Virus record (IMG/VR): IMGVR_UViG_3300042923_000666
Location: 1-22,276 of that record
DNA from: a virus
Length of the DNA: 22,276 nucleotides
Reading direction: 5' to 3' (one strand)
The notes under the pieces: generated by a model
Told to the model about the DNA's origin: nothing
Databases searched by the model: none
The model's input: the letters and a program-made list of their open reading frames with translations, nothing else
Part shown: positions 10,619 to 22,276 of the stretch, one piece after another
How the letters are laid out: each line of letters starts with the position of its first letter
Numbering within the stretch: the stretch's first letter is position 1
Program-made: the position numbers and the translations under genes

Positions 10619-10944
10619 CCCGCCCGGGAACGCTCGGTCCTGTCCTGCCAGTCACGGCGAAGGGGCATTGCGGGTTTGTCACGTCATGGGCTGTCCGCAT
10701 GTGTGGCGCCCCCGCAACCGTCCATTACCTGTACGCGAATCCGGTGCACAACATGTTCGCGTGCGCGGACCATGCGGGCCGGGTTGCTGTCGTGTTCCCC
10801 CCGGTTGACGCTCATCCTGTGGCTTCGGAGTGTGTGCATCCGGGGTCGGAGTGGCGCATGTCGGGGGTGCGTCCGGGGTTCTGTTTCGTGCCCGCGGAAG
10901 ACGTTGAGCTCGCCCACAGTCTTGAGGAAGCAGGAACCCGATGA
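10615..10944 (+). CDS. Hypothetical Cys/His protein, 109 aa
   Basis: The gene starts in an ATGA overlap with the methyltransferase. Residues 19, 30 and 50 are Cys with His53 (CADH), a spacing that could bind zinc; two further Cys residues lie in the C-terminal half. It ends in an ATGA overlap with the next gene. The family is not recognised. Confidence 0.65.
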   Translation: MTRPGTLGPVLPVTAKGHCGFVTSWAVRMCGAPATVHYLYANPVHNMFACADHAGRVAVVFPPVDAHPVASECVHPGSEWRMSGVRPGFCFVPAEDVELAHSLEEAGTR

Positions 10945-11558
10945 CCGAACTGTTGGATGCGGTGGATGCGTTGACGAAACCGGGGGTGCTGCATCATACG
11001 ATTCAGGATTCCCGGTTCACGTGTGTCGTGTTCGACACGCCCCTGTTGGACCGGTTGGAGAACGAGATCCGGTTCTCCCTCAGCCGGGAGGGTAGTAAGT
11101 CGCTCCCGAATCAGCGGGTACCGATCAACTCGGGCGCCCTGATGTTGTTCATGCGGATCAGTTCGCAGATCACGGATTGGGCGCATGACGCGAAAGCGAC
11201 GGTGCATAAGGGTGACCCGTCACGGACGTTGCGGGCCTGGTATGTGGCATGGACGCAGACGGAACGTGAGGCGGGAAGCATCGCCGGGCGTGTGCGTCTC
11301 CTCACCAACTGGGAAGCATCCATCCGCAGGGAGATTGAACCACCCCGACAGAAAGACCTCCCCGACCCGTGCCCTACGTGTGGGGCTTCGGAGTGGTGGA
11401 GGGATGGGGAACGATACCCGCGGCCCCTTGTCGTCGAATCACCCCGCAACCCTGACAAGTCGCTGATCGACGAGTCCACTGCCCATTGCCGCGCCTGCGA
11501 CAAGAGGTGGGGAGCACGAGAACTCGCCTACGAACTCGAACAGAAGGAAGGCGCATGA
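10941..11558 (+). CDS. Phage protein with C-terminal zinc ribbon, 205 aa
   Basis: The N-terminal 130 residues are helical, with several Trp residues. The C-terminus contains C144-x2-C147 (CPTC) and C183-x2-C186 (CRAC), a classical two-knuckle zinc ribbon with a GASEWW turn. Coupling to the two methyltransferase genes suggests a DNA-related task, such as recognising DNA, but the exact role is unknown. Confidence 0.7.
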   Translation: MTELLDAVDALTKPGVLHHTIQDSRFTCVVFDTPLLDRLENEIRFSLSREGSKSLPNQRVPINSGALMLFMRISSQITDWAHDAKATVHKGDPSRTLRAWYVAWTQTEREAGSIAGRVRLLTNWEASIRREIEPPRQKDLPDPCPTCGASEWWRDGERYPRPLVVESPRNPDKSLIDESTAHCRACDKRWGARELAYELEQKEGA

Positions 11559-12262: not shown

Positions 12263-12441
12263 TGGAGGCGGCAGTTTCAGTCCGCCGAGACGGCGGCATC
12301 ATGCGTCAGGGTGCGCTGATTGGATGGGCAGACCGGTTCAGGCAGCGCAGTGGAAAGTGGCGGGGAATCAAGGAAGGCGGGCGCGAGAAAGGCGGTTTCC
12401 CCTCACGCGCCGCTGCAGTGGAATGGGTGGTGAAGCCGTGA
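12262..12441 (+). CDS. Small basic protein, 59 aa
   Basis: The start overlaps the methyltransferase stop (TGATG). The core GWADRFRQRSGKWRG followed by GGFPSRAAAVEWV resembles the three-stranded AP2-like arm-binding domain found at the start of phage tyrosine integrases, but no recombinase is attached. The similarity is by eye and may be coincidental. It ends in a GTGA overlap. Confidence 0.55.
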   Translation: MEAAVSVRRDGGIMRQGALIGWADRFRQRSGKWRGIKEGGREKGGFPSRAAAVEWVVKP

Positions 12442-12743
12442 GGCGAGCAACATTGACCGAATACGCGATCCGCTGGACGGACTGCGGCGGCGTCATTCCG
12501 GACACATCGGCGCCAAGCACCAACCGCGCCCAAATGCAGGCGAGCCTCGATGCCTCCGCGTTTCGAGGTCGCTTGATCAAGCGAACAGTCACGTACACCG
12601 ACTGGGAAGAAGTGTGGCAGGAAGCCGGGGGCGGCTGTAAGTGCTGGGTGAACCCGAAGCCCTTCACGCACTACGGAGCTGTGGAACCTGGCGACGCTCT
12701 GGAACCGAACCACGAATGTCCGATGCACTTCCCCGAAGGGTAG
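12438..12743 (+). CDS. Hypothetical protein, 101 aa
   Basis: GTG 12438 overlaps the previous stop. The middle (residues 25-60) is basic and helical, the C-terminus contains a CKCW cluster and NHECPMH, so a metal site is possible. The TAG stop at 12741-12743 is followed within eight bases by the next ATG. Confidence 0.6.
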   Translation: MRRATLTEYAIRWTDCGGVIPDTSAPSTNRAQMQASLDASAFRGRLIKRTVTYTDWEEVWQEAGGGCKCWVNPKPFTHYGAVEPGDALEPNHECPMHFPEG

Positions 12744-12750
12744 GCAAGTA

Positions 12751-12924
12751 ATGAGCGACTACCGAGAGATTTTCGGCCGCGATCCGGAGCCGTGGCGCGA
12801 ACCGTTGGGGGCGTTGCGACTGACCTTGACTGGACCGGCCGGCATGGTCGACGTGGAACGCGCGCAGGCGGAGTGTGAGCGACTGGTGCGAATTCTCAAC
12901 GATCCCGCCGATAGGAGTGAGTAA
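12751..12924 (+). CDS. Small hypothetical protein, 57 aa
   Basis: The gene is eight bases after the previous stop and ends in a TAATG overlap. The sequence includes a short beta-type segment (ALRLTLTGPAGMVDV) and an amphipathic helix (ERAQAECERLVRIL). GAAGGG lies upstream of the start. The family is unknown. Confidence 0.55.
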   Translation: MSDYREIFGRDPEPWREPLGALRLTLTGPAGMVDVERAQAECERLVRILNDPADRSE

Positions 12925-13067
12925 TGGGGAAGCGCGTCTATCTGAACGATGCCGAACTCGAACTGCTGCGCGAGGCGGTCGAGAAGTGGACCAACTGGGC
13001 TGTCGATGACCGCACGGAGGAAGAGCACGATGCTCTGGATTCACTCCGACGCAAGGGAGTGTGGTGA
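12924..13067 (+). CDS. Small helical protein, 47 aa
   Basis: It starts in a TAATG overlap after AGGAG and is the last gene of the second early operon. The sequence is acidic and helical (AELELLREAVEKW), like a short helical bundle. It ends just upstream of the strong promoter at 13096. Confidence 0.55.
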   Translation: MGKRVYLNDAELELLREAVEKWTNWAVDDRTEEEHDALDSLRRKGVW

Positions 13068-13095
13068 TTTCGAGCGAATCACCGACTGATGAGTG

Positions 13096-13124
13096 TTGCG
13101 TACGAACGTTCGTGTGTGTATAAT
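13096..13124 (+). promoter_or_regulatory. Sigma70-type promoter with a 12-bp palindromic operator in its spacer
   Basis: TTGCGT (13096-13101) and a consensus TATAAT (13119-13124) are separated by exactly 17 bases. The spacer begins with the perfect palindrome ACGAACGTTCGT (13102-13113), placed where a dimeric repressor or activator would meet RNA polymerase. It is the best promoter I can see in the window, and it faces the HTH/metallophosphoesterase genes. It is a good candidate for a regulated phage promoter. Confidence 0.8.
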
Positions 13125-13401
13125 CGACCCTAGGTAGATGAAGCACGCCTTCAAGCCGCCAAACTAGCCTGCTCAGCCGCTCCGGCCACTGTGCGGGCTT
13201 TCTCATTCCTCCCGGCAGCGGGGACCCCGTAGTTCGGTTGAGGAAGGCTGGCCCAGGAGCCTGCCGCCATCACAAACGTGAGCCGTAAGTCGCGCTTCGC
13301 TACCGCGCCACTCACCAAACGGCCCGAGCCAGCGCTACCACGGCTGCGGCGGGCACCTTCACTTTCCCTGTGTACGCGCCCCTGCGTAATCCGGGGGGAG
13401 T
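13125..13401 (+). other. Non-coding leader downstream of the 13096 promoter
   Basis: Together with 13068-13095 this is over 300 bases without a convincing gene. It holds small inverted repeats at 13139-13153, 13219-13229 (CGGGG-A-CCCCG) and 13245-13262, then a G-rich ribosome site (13393-13400). It may be a long 5' leader, a small RNA, or a packaging-related region. The minus-strand ORF here is Arg/Ser-rich and looks like a shadow. Confidence 0.5.
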
Positions 13402-13671
13402 GTGCACCCAACCATGGGAGCGACCGTGGACCCGATGATTGAAGCTCTCGCGGAACCGCGGGTGAAAACGACAGCCGGCAAGTCACGCATGGATGCGTGG
13501 CTAGACACTCTTCCCGAAGCCCGACGCGCTGCCGTACTTGCGGCAGCCGTCAACCGTTCATGGGGTCACACCGACCTCCTCGAGCAGTTGCGTGAGTACG
13601 GTGCCCCCGAGATCGCTGACACGTCCTTCGGGGCGTGGCGCCGGAAGAAGGGGCTTCCCCGTGTCTCTTGA
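13402..13671 (+). CDS. Small helix-turn-helix protein, 89 aa
   Basis: Residues 26-85 look like a DNA-binding helical domain: RMDAWLDTLPEARRAAV, then GHTDLLEQLREYG, then SFGAWRRKKGL as a putative recognition helix with basic end. Such proteins often sit just before phage metallophosphoesterase genes. The GTG at 13402 may be too close to the G-rich site; ATG 13414 is an alternative, giving 85 aa. It overlaps the next gene by 11 bases. It might act on the palindromic promoter upstream, but nothing in the sequence proves this. Confidence 0.7.
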   Translation: MHPTMGATVDPMIEALAEPRVKTTAGKSRMDAWLDTLPEARRAAVLAAAVNRSWGHTDLLEQLREYGAPEIADTSFGAWRRKKGLPRVS

Positions 13672-14803
13672 AGAAGCCCTCAGCAACCCGCCTGTCGTGG
13701 TACCGAAGCAGTACCAGCAGCACGCCGAGTTCGACGAGAACGGCGGAACAGCCGCTACCGGTCCCGTGCGCCGCATGGTCACCGACTACCGGGAACTGCT
13801 GACCCTCGCCGGTCTCGACCCCGACGCTTTCCGCATCGTCGGCAAAGTGTCCCAGTGGTCCAAGACGCACCACGACAAGGAAGACACCTACAGTTTCTTC
13901 TTCACCTTTGAAGCCCTCACGGCTGGTGAAGACGCCATTGACCTCCCTGCCCTCTACGCCGAAGCGAGACGCAAACCGCGAACCCCCATCAGGGGTACGG
14001 CTGACAGCCGAGTTACTGTCGTCGCTCTATCGGACGTCCAAGCGGGCAAGGTTGACCACAGGGGCGGCACGCCCGAACTCATCGACCGCTTGGCGGGGAT
14101 GAGGGAACGGCTTGCCGCCCACCTCAAAGCACGCAAGCCTCAGGCGACCGTGCTCGCTGAGGTGGGTGATCTGTTCGAGGGGTTCGAGTCGGGTGGTAAC
14201 CCGATGTTCACCAACGACCTTTCGTTGGCGCAGCAGATGGACCTTGCTGGTACCGAGGTGTACCGGTTCGTTGAGGTCATGCAGAGGCATGGGCGCGTCG
14301 ACGTGGTGTCGATCCCGTCGAACCACACACAGTGGCGGTCCGGAAAGCAGCAACTCGGACGCCCCGGTGACGACCTCGGCATTTTCGTGCACCGGCAGGT
14401 CGAGAAACTAGCCAACGCGGCCGGCATCGACGCCCACTGGACATTCCCCGACATGTACAACGAGTCAGTCGTCCTCGACGTCCTCGGCACCGGTCTGGGT
14501 GTGGTCCACGGGAACCAGTTCAACACTGGTCAGGCGGTCACATGGTGGCAGAAGCAGCAACACGGTGGAATGCCCACCGCAACCGCTGACATCCTCCTCA
14601 CCGGTCACTACCACCACCTCACCGTGATCCCCTCGGGCCGTAACCCGGTCACAGGGAAACCGAAGTGGTGGTTGCAGGCGCCGACGACCGACAACGGTTC
14701 GTCTTGGTTCCGGAACGTTGGTGCCGGCGACAGTGACGCGGGGCTTCTGGTGTTCGACATCACGGAGGACGGGTTCGACCTCTCGAGCCTCACCGTCCTC
14801 TGA
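13661..14803 (+). CDS. Metallophosphoesterase (Mre11/calcineurin-like fold), 380 aa
   Basis: The two-metal active-site motifs appear in order: ALSDVQAGK (motif I, with Gln where most family members have His), EVGDLFEG (motif II), SNHTQ (motif III, usual GNHD/E), VVHGNQ and GHYHH (motifs IV-V). These fold into a dinuclear metal centre that cleaves phosphoesters, in the Mre11/SbcD group DNA. GTG 13661 is favoured because it follows AAGAAGGGG and preserves the usual short N-terminus; the upstream frame extension is a shadow of the HTH gene. It may process DNA ends in replication or host degradation. Confidence 0.88.
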   Translation: MSLEEALSNPPVVVPKQYQQHAEFDENGGTAATGPVRRMVTDYRELLTLAGLDPDAFRIVGKVSQWSKTHHDKEDTYSFFFTFEALTAGEDAIDLPALYAEARRKPRTPIRGTADSRVTVVALSDVQAGKVDHRGGTPELIDRLAGMRERLAAHLKARKPQATVLAEVGDLFEGFESGGNPMFTNDLSLAQQMDLAGTEVYRFVEVMQRHGRVDVVSIPSNHTQWRSGKQQLGRPGDDLGIFVHRQVEKLANAAGIDAHWTFPDMYNESVVLDVLGTGLGVVHGNQFNTGQAVTWWQKQQHGGMPTATADILLTGHYHHLTVIPSGRNPVTGKPKWWLQAPTTDNGSSWFRNVGAGDSDAGLLVFDITEDGFDLSSLTVL

Positions 14804-15726: not shown

Positions 15727-15800
15727 GGTTCTGTAGCTCAGTTGGTTAGAGCGCTGCCCTGTCACGGCAGAGGTCGCCGGTTCGAGTCCGGTCAGTACCG
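15727..15800 (+). tRNA. tRNA-Asp (anticodon GTC)
   Basis: The cloverleaf is clear: D arm with AGCTCAG-TTGGTTAGAG, anticodon stem CTGCC/GGCAG with GTC at 15761-15763, and T arm GCCGG-TTCGAGT-CCGGT. The acceptor stem GGTTCTG/CAGTACC has a T-T mismatch at the fourth pair; a G73 discriminator follows and CCA is not encoded. Everything but the acceptor looks like a bacterial tRNA-Asp. It may be a captured host gene, functional or decaying. Confidence 0.9.
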
Positions 15801-15849
15801 CACAATTCCCTTCGACACTGAACCTCCGAGGTACACCATGCGTGTGTGC

Positions 15850-19624: not shown

Positions 19625-20971
19625 ATGGCCGTTACGCCTGCTGAATGGCTCCCGGTATTGGCTAAGCGGCTCGATGACCGGCGTGCGCGGGTTGATCTGC
19701 TGATGTCGTATGTGACGGGCGATGCACCACTGCCGGAGATGAATCGTGCGACCCGGGAGGCGTGGCAGAGGTTCCAGCGTGAAGCGCGAACCTCGTTCGG
19801 GCTTCTCGTGGTCGAGGCGTTGACTGATCGGTTTGTTCCGAACGGTGTGCGTGTGGGCGGCGATGACGTGTCCGAAGCGACGGTTGCCGCACGCCGGATC
19901 TTCCGCGACAACCGCCTGTCCGTTGTATTCCCGGATGCTGCTCGTGACGCTTTCACGGCATCGGTTGGATACCTGATTGTCGGCGAGGACTCGGGCAAGG
20001 CGGTTATCACCGCCGAATCGCCGCAGTTCGTCATCACAGCGCCCGACCCGCTGCGTCCTTGGGTTTCTCGAGCGGCGCTCAAGGTCTATCGGGACTCAGA
20101 CGAGGGAGCGGACTTCGCGTTCGTGTGGGCTGACGGTAACCGGCAGCTGTTCACGCGCCCCATTGCGGACCCGTCCTCATCCGAGCCTTACAACTTCACG
20201 TCTGAGGGTGAATGGCTCTCGGTGGATGAGCCACAGCGGTATTCGGGGAACGTTCCCGTCTTTGCCCTTGAGAACAAGGGTGGGGTGGGCGAGTTCGAGC
20301 CCCACATTGACATCCTGAACCGCATCAACCGCAACCTGCTACAGCGGCTTACCACCGTAGCGATGCAGGCGTTCAAACAGCGCATGGTCGAGGGCGGGTT
20401 GCCTGAGACCGACAACACCGGCAACGACATGGACTGGGCGCAGGTGTTCGAGCCGTCGCCCGGTGCGCTGTGGGATCTTCCCGAGGGCATCAAGGTCAGT
20501 GAGCTCGCCGATGGGTCCGCTGGGATCATGGCGATGCTCCAGGCTGAGGACGCGGATCTTCGCGCGTTCGCCGCGGTGACTCAGACGCCCCTTCCCATGC
20601 TGATGCCTGACGGTGCGAACCAGTCTGCGGAGGGCGCACAGTTCTCCCGCGAAGGCTTGGTGTTGAAGGCCGAGGACCGGGTGGACCGGTTCAAGCCGGC
20701 GCTTGCTCTGGCACTCGTGTACGCGCTCCGCATCGAAGGCATGAGTGATGTCGACGATGTGGAGGTTCTGTTCGAGCCTGCGGCTTACGTGACTCTCTCG
20801 GAGAAGTACGCGGCTGCGGCTCAGGCTTCCGGGCTTCTCGCGATCCGCACCATTCAGCGGCAGATCCTCGGCATGTCTCAGGCGGCTATCGCTGAGGACG
20901 AGGTGAACCGTGCGGCGGAGCAGTTGCAGGCGTTCACGTTGACGGGTGGAGCGGATGCCGAAGCGCAGTAA
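19625..20971 (+). CDS. Portal protein (SPP1 gp6-like), 448 aa
   Basis: The sequence has the portal signature region: EALTDRFVPNGVRV (about 60-75), the beta-rich wing, PVFALENKGGVGEFE (about 210-225), and the long helical stem with MAMLQAEDADLRAFAAVTQTPLPML, before the final crown helices. Portals form a 12-subunit ring at one capsid vertex through which DNA passes. ATG 19625 has AAAGGGGG upstream. Its 3' end overlaps the MuF gene by 17 bases, as is common for this pair. Confidence 0.9.
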   Translation: MAVTPAEWLPVLAKRLDDRRARVDLLMSYVTGDAPLPEMNRATREAWQRFQREARTSFGLLVVEALTDRFVPNGVRVGGDDVSEATVAARRIFRDNRLSVVFPDAARDAFTASVGYLIVGEDSGKAVITAESPQFVITAPDPLRPWVSRAALKVYRDSDEGADFAFVWADGNRQLFTRPIADPSSSEPYNFTSEGEWLSVDEPQRYSGNVPVFALENKGGVGEFEPHIDILNRINRNLLQRLTTVAMQAFKQRMVEGGLPETDNTGNDMDWAQVFEPSPGALWDLPEGIKVSELADGSAGIMAMLQAEDADLRAFAAVTQTPLPMLMPDGANQSAEGAQFSREGLVLKAEDRVDRFKPALALALVYALRIEGMSDVDDVEVLFEPAAYVTLSEKYAAAAQASGLLAIRTIQRQILGMSQAAIAEDEVNRAAEQLQAFTLTGGADAEAQ

Positions 20972-22276
20972 CCGGATCATCCTCGGCTACTCGAGGGCGA
21001 TCGCCGATGTTCGCTCGCGGGTTGTCCAGTTCGCCACGGCGACATGGTTGAGCTTGCCGGAGTATCGCGACGCGGATGTTGACCGTCTCGTGCGGCTGGT
21101 TACGCCTGTCGTGCTCGCGGGGCAGACCCGCGCGGCGTCACTGACGGTTGCGTACCTTCAGGCGCTCGCGACGGAAGCTGGCGTAACGCTCACGGGGGCG
21201 CTAGACGCCTCTGTGACGGCCTATCGGGGCGTTCCTGCGGTGGATGTGTACCGGCGTCCTGCTGTGACGTTGTACACGGCCCTGTCGAATGGTGTTTCGT
21301 TCACCGACGCGAAGGCGCAGGGGCTCACCCGGCTCGTGTCGCTGGCGTCTACGGACATTCAGCAGGCACGCAACCGGCAGGCCGCGGCATCCATCGCCGG
21401 TTCCGGGTTCAAATCGTTCTCACGTGTGCTGTCTGGCACGGAGGACTGCGAACTGTGCACCGTAGCCGCTGACCGGACCTACTACCGCGGCGACCTGATG
21501 CCGATCCACCCGGGCTGCGTACCCGGCGACTCAGTACTTTCGCCCATAGCGGGCGGAAGCACCCATCTTGCCGATTTCGCTTGGGGTGAGGTTGAGGCTG
21601 TTTCGCGCCGACTGTTCGAGGGTGAACTCATCGAGTTCATCACGGCCAGAGGCGATGAGGTGCGCGTCACCCCGAATCACCCTGTACTCACCGCGAAGGG
21701 CTGGATTCCGGCTCACCTCCTGAGCGAAGGCGACACAGTATTCAGCAGCGGCTCGCGTGAGCGGGTAGTTACTGGTGGCCCATACGTAAACGAGCGCCCA
21801 GCCTTCGCCGAGGATGTATTTGACGCGGCGCGGGTGGCGTTCCCCCTTGTACGCGTGCCACTCGCCGCCGAGGATTTCCACGCCGACGCTGCCGAGGGTG
21901 AAGTCGAGATTGTATATACCCACGGCAACTTCCCGGCGCCACGGAACGCCGATCCTGTCCAGGGAGCGAGCGAACTTGGCTTCGTGCACGCTCATGGCAG
22001 GCGGGTTGCGCTCGATGGTAGCGGCGCGCTTGGCCCGCTCATCCCACGTAGCCTTGCGGCCCCTGGTAGCGGAATGGGCGGCGGCTACCTGAGCGGAGAT
22101 CTGCTCCGGGGTCATCCGACTAGCTCGGTTGAGGCCAGCGGAACTGCGTCCGCGCGGTTCGATGCCCCTGCTGGTGAGTTCTCGCCGGAGAGCGCCCCGG
22201 TCTACGCCAGTCAGGGATTGGATCTTGTACGCCGACTCGCCAGCGACGTAGAGGGCGACCGCGTTGTCAAGCTTCG
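20955..22276 (+). CDS. MuF-like minor head protein interrupted by an intein (3' partial)
   Basis: The frame from ATG 20955 stays open for 440 codons to the window end. Residues 1-187 look like a Mu gpF/SPP1 gp7 head-morphogenesis protein: helical N-terminus, GVSFTDAKAQGLTRLV, then C165-x2-C168 and YYRGDLMPIHPGC with His185 and Cys188, the typical MuF end block. Such proteins are few per procapsid and often associate with portal and DNA ejection. At Cys188 the expected ending is replaced by an intein/Hint domain. GGTGGAG precedes the start, which overlaps portal by 17 bases. The C-extein is outside the window. Confidence 0.9.
   Translation, partial: MPKRSNRIILGYSRAIADVRSRVVQFATATWLSLPEYRDADVDRLVRLVTPVVLAGQTRAASLTVAYLQALATEAGVTLTGALDASVTAYRGVPAVDVYRRPAVTLYTALSNGVSFTDAKAQGLTRLVSLASTDIQQARNRQAAASIAGSGFKSFSRVLSGTEDCELCTVAADRTYYRGDLMPIHPGCVPGDSVLSPIAGGSTHLADFAWGEVEAVSRRLFEGELIEFITARGDEVRVTPNHPVLTAKGWIPAHLLSEGDTVFSSGSRERVVTGGPYVNERPAFAEDVFDAARVAFPLVRVPLAAEDFHADAAEGEVEIVYTHGNFPAPRNADPVQGASELGFVHAHGRRVALDGSGALGPLIPRSLAAPGSGMGGGYLSGDLLRGHPTSSVEASGTASARFDAPAGEFSPESAPVYASQGLDLVRRLASDVEGDRVVKL
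21516..22276 (+). other. Intein (Hint domain) inside the MuF gene, C-terminal end outside window
   Basis: Block A is CVPGDSVLSP starting at Cys188; block B is VRVTPNHPVL with Thr239 and His242 (TxxH), followed by GWIPAHLLSEGDTVF. This is the canonical splicing N-terminal half: Cys as nucleophile, TxxH assisting the first acyl shift. A linker of about 180 residues follows, then DRVVKL at the window end, which resembles the beginning of block F. There is no LAGLIDADG or HNH nuclease in the sense frame; instead the antisense strand of this DNA encodes a nuclease. Splicing would restore the Cys-containing MuF end. A non-splicing Hint toxin-processing domain is the alternative until the end is seen. 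Confidence 0.88.
21531..22276 (-). CDS. Antisense HTH + Vsr/DUF559-like homing endonuclease within the intein (5' partial)
   Basis: Read leftward from the window end, the frame gives an HTH-like segment (AVALYVAGESAYKIQSLTG, then GALRRELTSRGIEPRG), a basic linker, and from ATG 22115 a nuclease domain. The nuclease has the Vsr/DUF559 layout: SVHEAKF helix, GVPWRREVAVG, YNLDF with Asp71 (21903-21905), VGVEILGGEWH with Glu80 (21876-21878) and His87, then a basic helix HPRRVKYIL and GWALVYVW strand (numbering from that ATG). The stop (21531-21533) is five codons inside the intein. The HTH sits upstream of the ATG, so the true start lies beyond the window or near its edge. It is presumably the intein's homing nuclease, expressed from its own antisense promoter. 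Confidence 0.85.
   Translation of the reverse strand, partial: KLDNAVALYVAGESAYKIQSLTGVDRGALRRELTSRGIEPRGRSSAGLNRASRMTPEQISAQVAAAHSATRGRKATWDERAKRAATIERNPPAMSVHEAKFARSLDRIGVPWRREVAVGIYNLDFTLGSVGVEILGGEWHAYKGERHPRRVKYILGEGWALVYVWATSNYPLTRAAAEYCVAFAQEVSRNPALRGEYRVIRGDAHLIASGRDELDEFTLEQSARNSLNLTPSEIGKMGASARYGRKY

What the first reader, a model, noticed from the sequence alone, without database searches (positions are those of the whole stretch)
13096..13124. Near-consensus promoter with a perfect palindrome between -35 and -10
The spacing is ideal (17) and the -10 is consensus, rare in this GC-rich sequence. The embedded ACGAACGTTCGT would be contacted by a dimeric repressor that blocks polymerase, or by an activator that reshapes the spacer. 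The following gene is an HTH protein, suggesting possible autoregulation.
Basis: partly seen in the sequence, partly recalled or inferred. Interest (0 to 1): 0.55.

Follow-up and report, generated by a model that had tools for sequence, protein, structure and literature searches.

The report
Phage promoter-terminator switch before late genes
The palindrome sits inside a real phage promoter that is followed almost at once by a stop signal for transcription, a layout shared by dozens of related phages and resembling the switches by which lambda-like phages turn on their late genes.

Summary
The sequence is as described: TTGCGT, 17 bases holding ACGAACGTTCGT, TATAAT (13096-13124). The -35 matches only 3 of 6, and the palindrome occurs once in the window. 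It recurs at the same place in related phages, so the promoter is very likely real. A perfect palindrome is not the conserved property: only 4 of 12 same-class promoters have it. The right half CGTTCGT is present in all 12; the left arm varies.

What is conserved is a cassette: promoter, then a hairpin with a T-rich tail (T1) whose stem starts within about 50 nt of the predicted start, then a ~220-nt leader, then a small ORF. T1 is present in all 36 distinct records examined, with non-homologous sequences in the same slot. Promoter type co-varies with the last conserved early gene (DUF7341/DUF7340 clade, or an unrelated zinc-finger protein plus an HTH_17 protein; Mantel r=0.68, n=21), not with the downstream HTH-like ORF (r=-0.13).

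Best reading: a late-gene control cassette that works like lambda Q, AlpA or GafZ antitermination, the spacer element being the loading site. Autoregulation by the 89-aa protein is not supported. The Q/AlpA pause motif is absent and DUF7341 has no Q-like fold: analogy, not membership. Antitermination itself is inferred.

The parts
13096..13101 (+). -35 hexamer TTGCGT (3 of 6)
   Evidence: TTGC kept in the same-class relatives
13102..13113 (+). spacer element ACGAACGTTCGT; class consensus ACG[AC][AC]CGTTCGT
13119..13124 (+). -10 hexamer TATAAT; predicted start about 13131
   Evidence: TANNNT in most relatives
13133..13157 (+). possible 5'-terminal RNA hairpin HP1 (GGTAG..AAGCC); weak in the window itself
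   Evidence: -4.6 kcal/mol, 21 of 50 shuffles as good; strong in many relatives
13166..13208 (+). intrinsic-terminator-like hairpin T1 (stem 13166-13199, tail TTCTCATTC)
   Evidence: -17.4 kcal/mol, starts +36; 1 of 100 shuffles as good
13206..13425 (+). non-coding leader conserved among relatives, ending in the ribosome binding site
   Evidence: no Rfam family
13426..13671 (+). small all-helical HTH-like ORF (81 aa), first gene after the leader
13661..14803 (+). MRE11-like exonuclease gene (phrog_284)
10941..11558 (+). DUF7341+DUF7340 zinc-ribbon protein (205 aa), candidate regulator

Best explanation
The site is the promoter of a late-gene control cassette in a temperate phage related to phages of Microbacterium. 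RNA polymerase starts at about 13131 and, by default, stops at the terminator T1 some 70-80 nt later. A phage protein made from the end of the early operon recognises the class-specific element between -35 and -10, joins the polymerase, and lets it read through T1 (and possibly a second hairpin in the leader) into the leader, the small ORF, the MRE11-like gene and on towards the terminase and structural genes. The leading candidate is the DUF7341/DUF7340 zinc-ribbon protein at 10941-11558; in some relatives an unrelated zinc-finger protein plus an HTH_17 protein stands in its place. Shown by sequence: promoter conservation, a T1-like hairpin in every relative, class-specific elements, association with the early gene. 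Inferred: that T1 terminates, that the element is bound, that read-through is regulated, and which protein does it.
For: T1: 21 of 21 promoters found first (0-7 of 100 shuffles as good) and 16 of 16 found afterwards, 14 by scanning for the regulator gene and two from isolated phages (0-2 of 60); 36 distinct records in all. T1 sequences are of several non-homologous types in the same slot. Promoter versus protein at the DUF position: r=0.68, p=0.0003, n=21; partial r=0.65 after T1, leader, ORF81 and 300 nt upstream. In regulator-first scans, 3 of the 5 new contigs with a clade-I relative (78-93% identical) carry the class-1 element (L143, L150, L155), one (L152) a related element; 4 of 5 new type-V loci have TTGACA. 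In Footloose, gp62 (a DUF7341 relative: scanning with it finds L170-L172) ends at 35788, followed by TGC-TATCCT, a terminator at 35845, tRNA-Leu and MRE11. vB_MoxS-R1 has the same order with a type-V protein, an HTH_17-like ORF, terminator and tRNA-Ala. Published Q21, AlpA and GafZ elements lie between -35 and -10 with terminators downstream; the GafZ element is a near-perfect palindrome and GafZ has only one target (passages read).
Against: No sigma-dependent pause motif: TANNNT near +1 in 5 of 37 promoters. DUF7341 has no PDB fold match (best E 0.26) and no recognised DNA-binding domain. Within DUF7341 clade I (n=12) promoter and protein similarity do not correlate (r=-0.09): ACGAACGTTCGT, CTAACGATTAGTG and TTACACCCGTGTAA promoters occur with nearly the same protein. 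Distant DUF7341 proteins of mycobacteriophages and Gordonia phages (Che8 gp100 and others) sit inside operons. L042 has the class-1-like palindrome with a clade-II protein. The relative L156 (42%) shows no element, and its only strong terminator lies about 540 nt behind the gene. The -10 hexamers of the relatives were chosen by eye.
Confidence: 0.5

Rival explanations
1. Ordinary operator: a phage-encoded dimeric repressor (or activator) binds the palindrome and blocks or helps polymerase; T1 merely insulates the late operon from early read-through.
For: Palindromes with arms of 6 or more in 10 of 21 promoters, of different sequence in different classes and at different distances from the -10, as tolerated by steric repression.
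Against: One exact copy per record; one arm decays in 8 of 12 class-1 sites; TTGACA-type promoters have no spacer palindrome. The small HTH repressors beside the integrases of G003 and G009 look alike by eye although their palindromes differ. An insulating terminator would be expected before the promoter, not after it.
Confidence: 0.2
2. The product is the short RNA itself (5' hairpin plus T1), acting in trans, for instance as a decoy against RNA-antitoxin defence systems; the variable T1 sequences would be swapped specificities.
For: In L022 the T1 slot is an abiF RNA (RF03085, 43.4 bits, cut-off 37) in a record with no Abi_2 match; abiF-motif RNA is an antitoxin in C. difficile (PMC12373285, passages read). 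Hairpins at the RNA 5' end in 34 of 36 promoters, better than nearly all shuffles in 24.
Against: 1 of 28 records has an abiF match. In class 2 and clade II the RNA would be a bare terminator hairpin of about 40 nt. Does not explain co-variation of promoter type with an early gene.
Confidence: 0.12
3. Constitutive host-type promoter serving the leader and, in some relatives, a tRNA; element differences reflect drift and recombination without a dedicated regulator.
For: tRNA genes lie in this slot in L016, L022, L035, L045, L066 and Footloose. Within clade I the promoter follows its neighbouring DNA (up300 r=0.46, p=0.006).
Against: A terminator-like hairpin directly behind the promoter in 36 of 36 records; palindromes of unrelated sequence in the same spacer.
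Confidence: 0.15

Closest known systems
Lambda / phage 21 Q antitermination at pR' with tR'
   Same: binding element between -35 and -10, terminator downstream, late genes behind (passages of PMC6606751); regulator gene just before the promoter (lambda gene order recalled)
   Different: no -10-like pause motif; candidate protein has no Q-like fold; host is an actinobacterium
AlpA of Pseudomonas aeruginosa (AlpA binding element, terminator tB)
   Same: element between -10 and -35, intrinsic terminator before the first gene (PMC9371919, PMC7969949)
   Different: element GGGACG is not palindromic; pause motif required there and not found here
GafZ of the Caulobacter gene transfer agent
   Same: near-perfect palindrome between -10 and -35, single target, antiterminator of structural genes (PMC11150451)
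   Different: terminator there lies after the first gene; IHF and GafY needed there; proteins not compared here
DUF7341/DUF7340 (PF24030, PF24029)
   Same: window protein matches both; DUF7341 above cut-off, DUF7340 below it
   Different: function unknown; no paper found in the library
abiF RNA (RF03085)
   Same: occupies the T1 slot in one relative, L022
   Different: no Rfam match in window 12400-14000; no abiF match in the other 27 of 28 records searched

Membership tests
Promoter-loaded antiterminators (Q, AlpA, GafZ) | recognition element between -35 and -10 | tested here: met
   location and class-specific conservation; binding itself not tested
Promoter-loaded antiterminators (Q, AlpA, GafZ) | terminator downstream of the start point | tested here: met
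   36 of 36 distinct records; termination itself not tested
Promoter-loaded antiterminators (Q, AlpA) | -10-like pause element near +1 | tested here: not met
   TANNNT in 5 of 37 promoters, absent in the window
Promoter-loaded antiterminators | antiterminator protein with HTH or Q-like fold | tested here: not met
   DUF7341 model: no PDB match at E<=0.001; weak HTH_17 only in type-V phages, below cut-off
Promoter-loaded antiterminators | regulator gene encoded upstream, its type matching the promoter type | tested here: inconclusive
   matches between clades (r=0.68), not within clade I (r=-0.09)
Promoter-loaded antiterminators | read-through of the terminator | not testable with these tools
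   needs transcription assays
Autoregulated operator of the downstream HTH gene | palindrome type follows HTH protein type | tested here: not met
   r=-0.13, p=0.88, n=21
Prophage immunity operator | several copies of the operator in the genome | tested here: not met
   one exact copy per record; own palindromes not repeated elsewhere

The most novel reading that the evidence does not exclude
DUF7341/DUF7340 proteins and the replacing zinc-finger/HTH_17 pair are previously unrecognised antiterminators of actinobacteriophages, unrelated in fold to Q. They load at a class-specific element in the promoter spacer, without the -10-like pause motif, perhaps through the hairpin at the RNA 5' end. Phages exchange promoter, terminator and leader as separate small modules while promoter and regulator stay matched.
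Probability: 0.28. Interest if true: 0.78.

Novelty: new variant of a known kind. Interest (0 to 1): 0.6.

Why it matters
How phages of actinobacteria switch on their late genes is, as far as I recall, poorly known, and my searches listed no antitermination system in them (listings only). This analysis points to one short cassette, candidate regulators, and two isolated phages (Footloose, vB_MoxS-R1) in which it can be tested.

Tried and rejected
Blastn of 12900-13700 in phages: no match. Rfam on 12400-14000: none. A conserved hairpin H1 in the leader: RNAalifold found no pairs, so no structured-RNA claim is made for the leader. DUF7341 by fold: no PDB match; of the 7 BFVD matches at E<=0.001, one is named ribbon-helix-helix DNA binding (Gordonia phage VanLee), the others are uncharacterised or unnamed. 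Fusion of DUF7341 to an HTH in other phages: not found in the 3 proteins examined. Genome contigs: 2 distant relatives only, Leifsonia sp. Root4 and Arthrobacter sp. ES3-54. A regulatory-looking repeat in G001 at about 6063 was read and set aside. LexA, MerR-type and immunity-repressor readings were considered and dropped. The -10 hexamers of relatives were chosen by eye; the anchor for L152 fell upstream of its likely -10, with no effect on the terminator found.

Full report
The site. The window holds TTGCGT-17-TATAAT with ACGAACGTTCGT in the spacer (13096-13124). The -35 is poor, the -10 perfect. The palindrome is unique in the window. The window is a 22,276-base IMG/VR virus record. The genes I consider real around the site run rightwards, from early functions (WhiB, methyltransferase, DUF7341) to an MRE11-like exonuclease; by my reading of the frames, HNH, terminase and portal genes follow.

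Relatives. MRE11-like relatives were found in 80 viral loci. An exact scan for palindrome plus TATAAT found 3 other contigs, two of which were already in that set. All lie at the same place, between a variable early gene and a conserved non-coding leader of about 180-230 nt that ends at the start codon of a small ORF. Scanning for a leader motif added further contigs.

What is conserved in the spacer. Among 12 contigs of the same promoter class, ACGAACGTTCGT is exact in 4 (window, L004, L006, L084), ACGACCGTTCGT in 6 (L003, L130, L131, L134, L150, L155) and ACGCACGTTCGT in 2 (L008, L143). CGTTCGT is present in all 12. Other phages carry other inverted repeats in or next to the spacer: CACTAA-CGA-TTAGTG (L005, L126), TAAGCC-AC-GGCTTA (L013), CATAAGCA-CC-TGCTTATG (L024), CACGAACGTTCGTG (L042), TTACAC-CC-GTGTAA (L135). 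Ten of 21 promoters have a perfect repeat with arms of at least 6 and gap of at most 4, each with a shuffle frequency of 0.004-0.044. L009 and L124 are half-broken versions; L002, L010, L014, L017 and L129 have none by this test. So a perfect palindrome is not required, but symmetric elements recur more often than the shuffles suggest.

The terminator. Every promoter is followed by a hairpin of -12 to -21 kcal/mol with a T-rich tail. Its stem starts at +1 to +48. The hairpins fall into non-homologous types in the same slot. The count is 21 of 21 in the first set and 16 of 16 in the second, which make 36 distinct records because L124 and L142 are one contig. In 24 of 36 promoters a hairpin at the RNA 5' end is better than all but at most 3 of 50 shuffles; in class 2 and clade II this hairpin is the terminator itself, and in the window it is weak.

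The matching early gene. The last conserved early gene is a DUF7341/DUF7340 zinc-ribbon protein. Clade I (77-98% identical to the window) occurs in all 12 tested loci with promoters of the CGAACG/TTAGTGTG/TTCGTGTG group; clade II in L013, L024, L042; single loci in clades III (L002) and IV (L014). Four loci (L010, L011, L017, L129) encode instead an unrelated zinc-finger protein, with an HTH_17-like protein, and their promoters have a consensus TTGACA. Promoter similarity follows this gene (r=0.68, p=0.0003; partial 0.65) more than the adjacent terminator (0.29), leader (0.10) or ORF81 (-0.13), n=21. Against this, within clade I there is no correlation (r=-0.09, n=12), so the differences inside the clade are unexplained. 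Regulator-first scans tested the link on new contigs: L143, L150 and L155 carry the class-1 element, L152 a related one, L156 none; type-V L159, L160, L161 and L163 have TTGACA, L162 does not; clade-II L165 has TAAGC.

Isolated phages. Microbacterium phage Footloose and vB_MoxS-R1 show the same order: regulator gene, promoter, terminator, tRNA, then the genes leading to the terminase or the genome end.

Mechanism. The published systems with this anatomy are Q, AlpA and GafZ: element between -35 and -10, terminator downstream, read-through when the protein is loaded (passages read: PMC6606751; PMC9371919; PMC7969949; PMC11150451). The GafZ element is itself a near-perfect palindrome and GafZ has one target, as the single copy here would suggest. 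The -10-like pause motif of Q and AlpA is not present (5 of 37), and DUF7341 shows no fold match. I therefore say that it works like this class, at 0.5, and do not file it as a member.

Literature. Searches for late promoters or antitermination in actinobacteriophages, mycobacteriophages or Microbacterium phages and for DUF7341 (no paper) showed no earlier description; only listings were seen and not every hit was listed.

Noticed in passing
L022:3146-3181 (+): An abiF RNA (RF03085, 43.4 bits) forms the terminator behind the corresponding promoter in a virus record without an Abi_2 match; it might be a decoy antitoxin against host AbiF.
   Followed up: partly
L016:3473-3549, L022:3470-3554, L035:3468-3543, L122 (Footloose):36082-36166: tRNA-Leu(CAA) genes sit between terminator and small ORF; L045 and L066 have tRNA-Asn in about the same place.
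   Followed up: partly
L018:3361-3870: By eye the leader carries a stretch with tmRNA-like ends; ARAGORN and Rfam do not report it.
   Followed up: no
window 15727-15801: tRNA-Asp(GTC) gene between the MRE11-like gene and the terminase genes; also in L017, L040 and L042.
   Followed up: no
L102:5980-6130 (record G001): Another promoter-like region (TTGACA) with repeated GGGTNNNACCC-type inverted repeats, perhaps an early operator.
   Followed up: no
L084 and L004, upstream of the promoter: Genes resembling a queuosine-precursor transporter (188-189 aa) lie between DUF7341 and the promoter (reading by eye).
   Followed up: no
L009:2257-3519: An RtcB-like RNA ligase ORF lies between DUF7341 and the promoter (reading by eye).
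   Followed up: no
window 20946-22274: MuF-like capsid gene whose frame seems to hold an intein (CVPGDSVL...; reading by eye).
   Followed up: no
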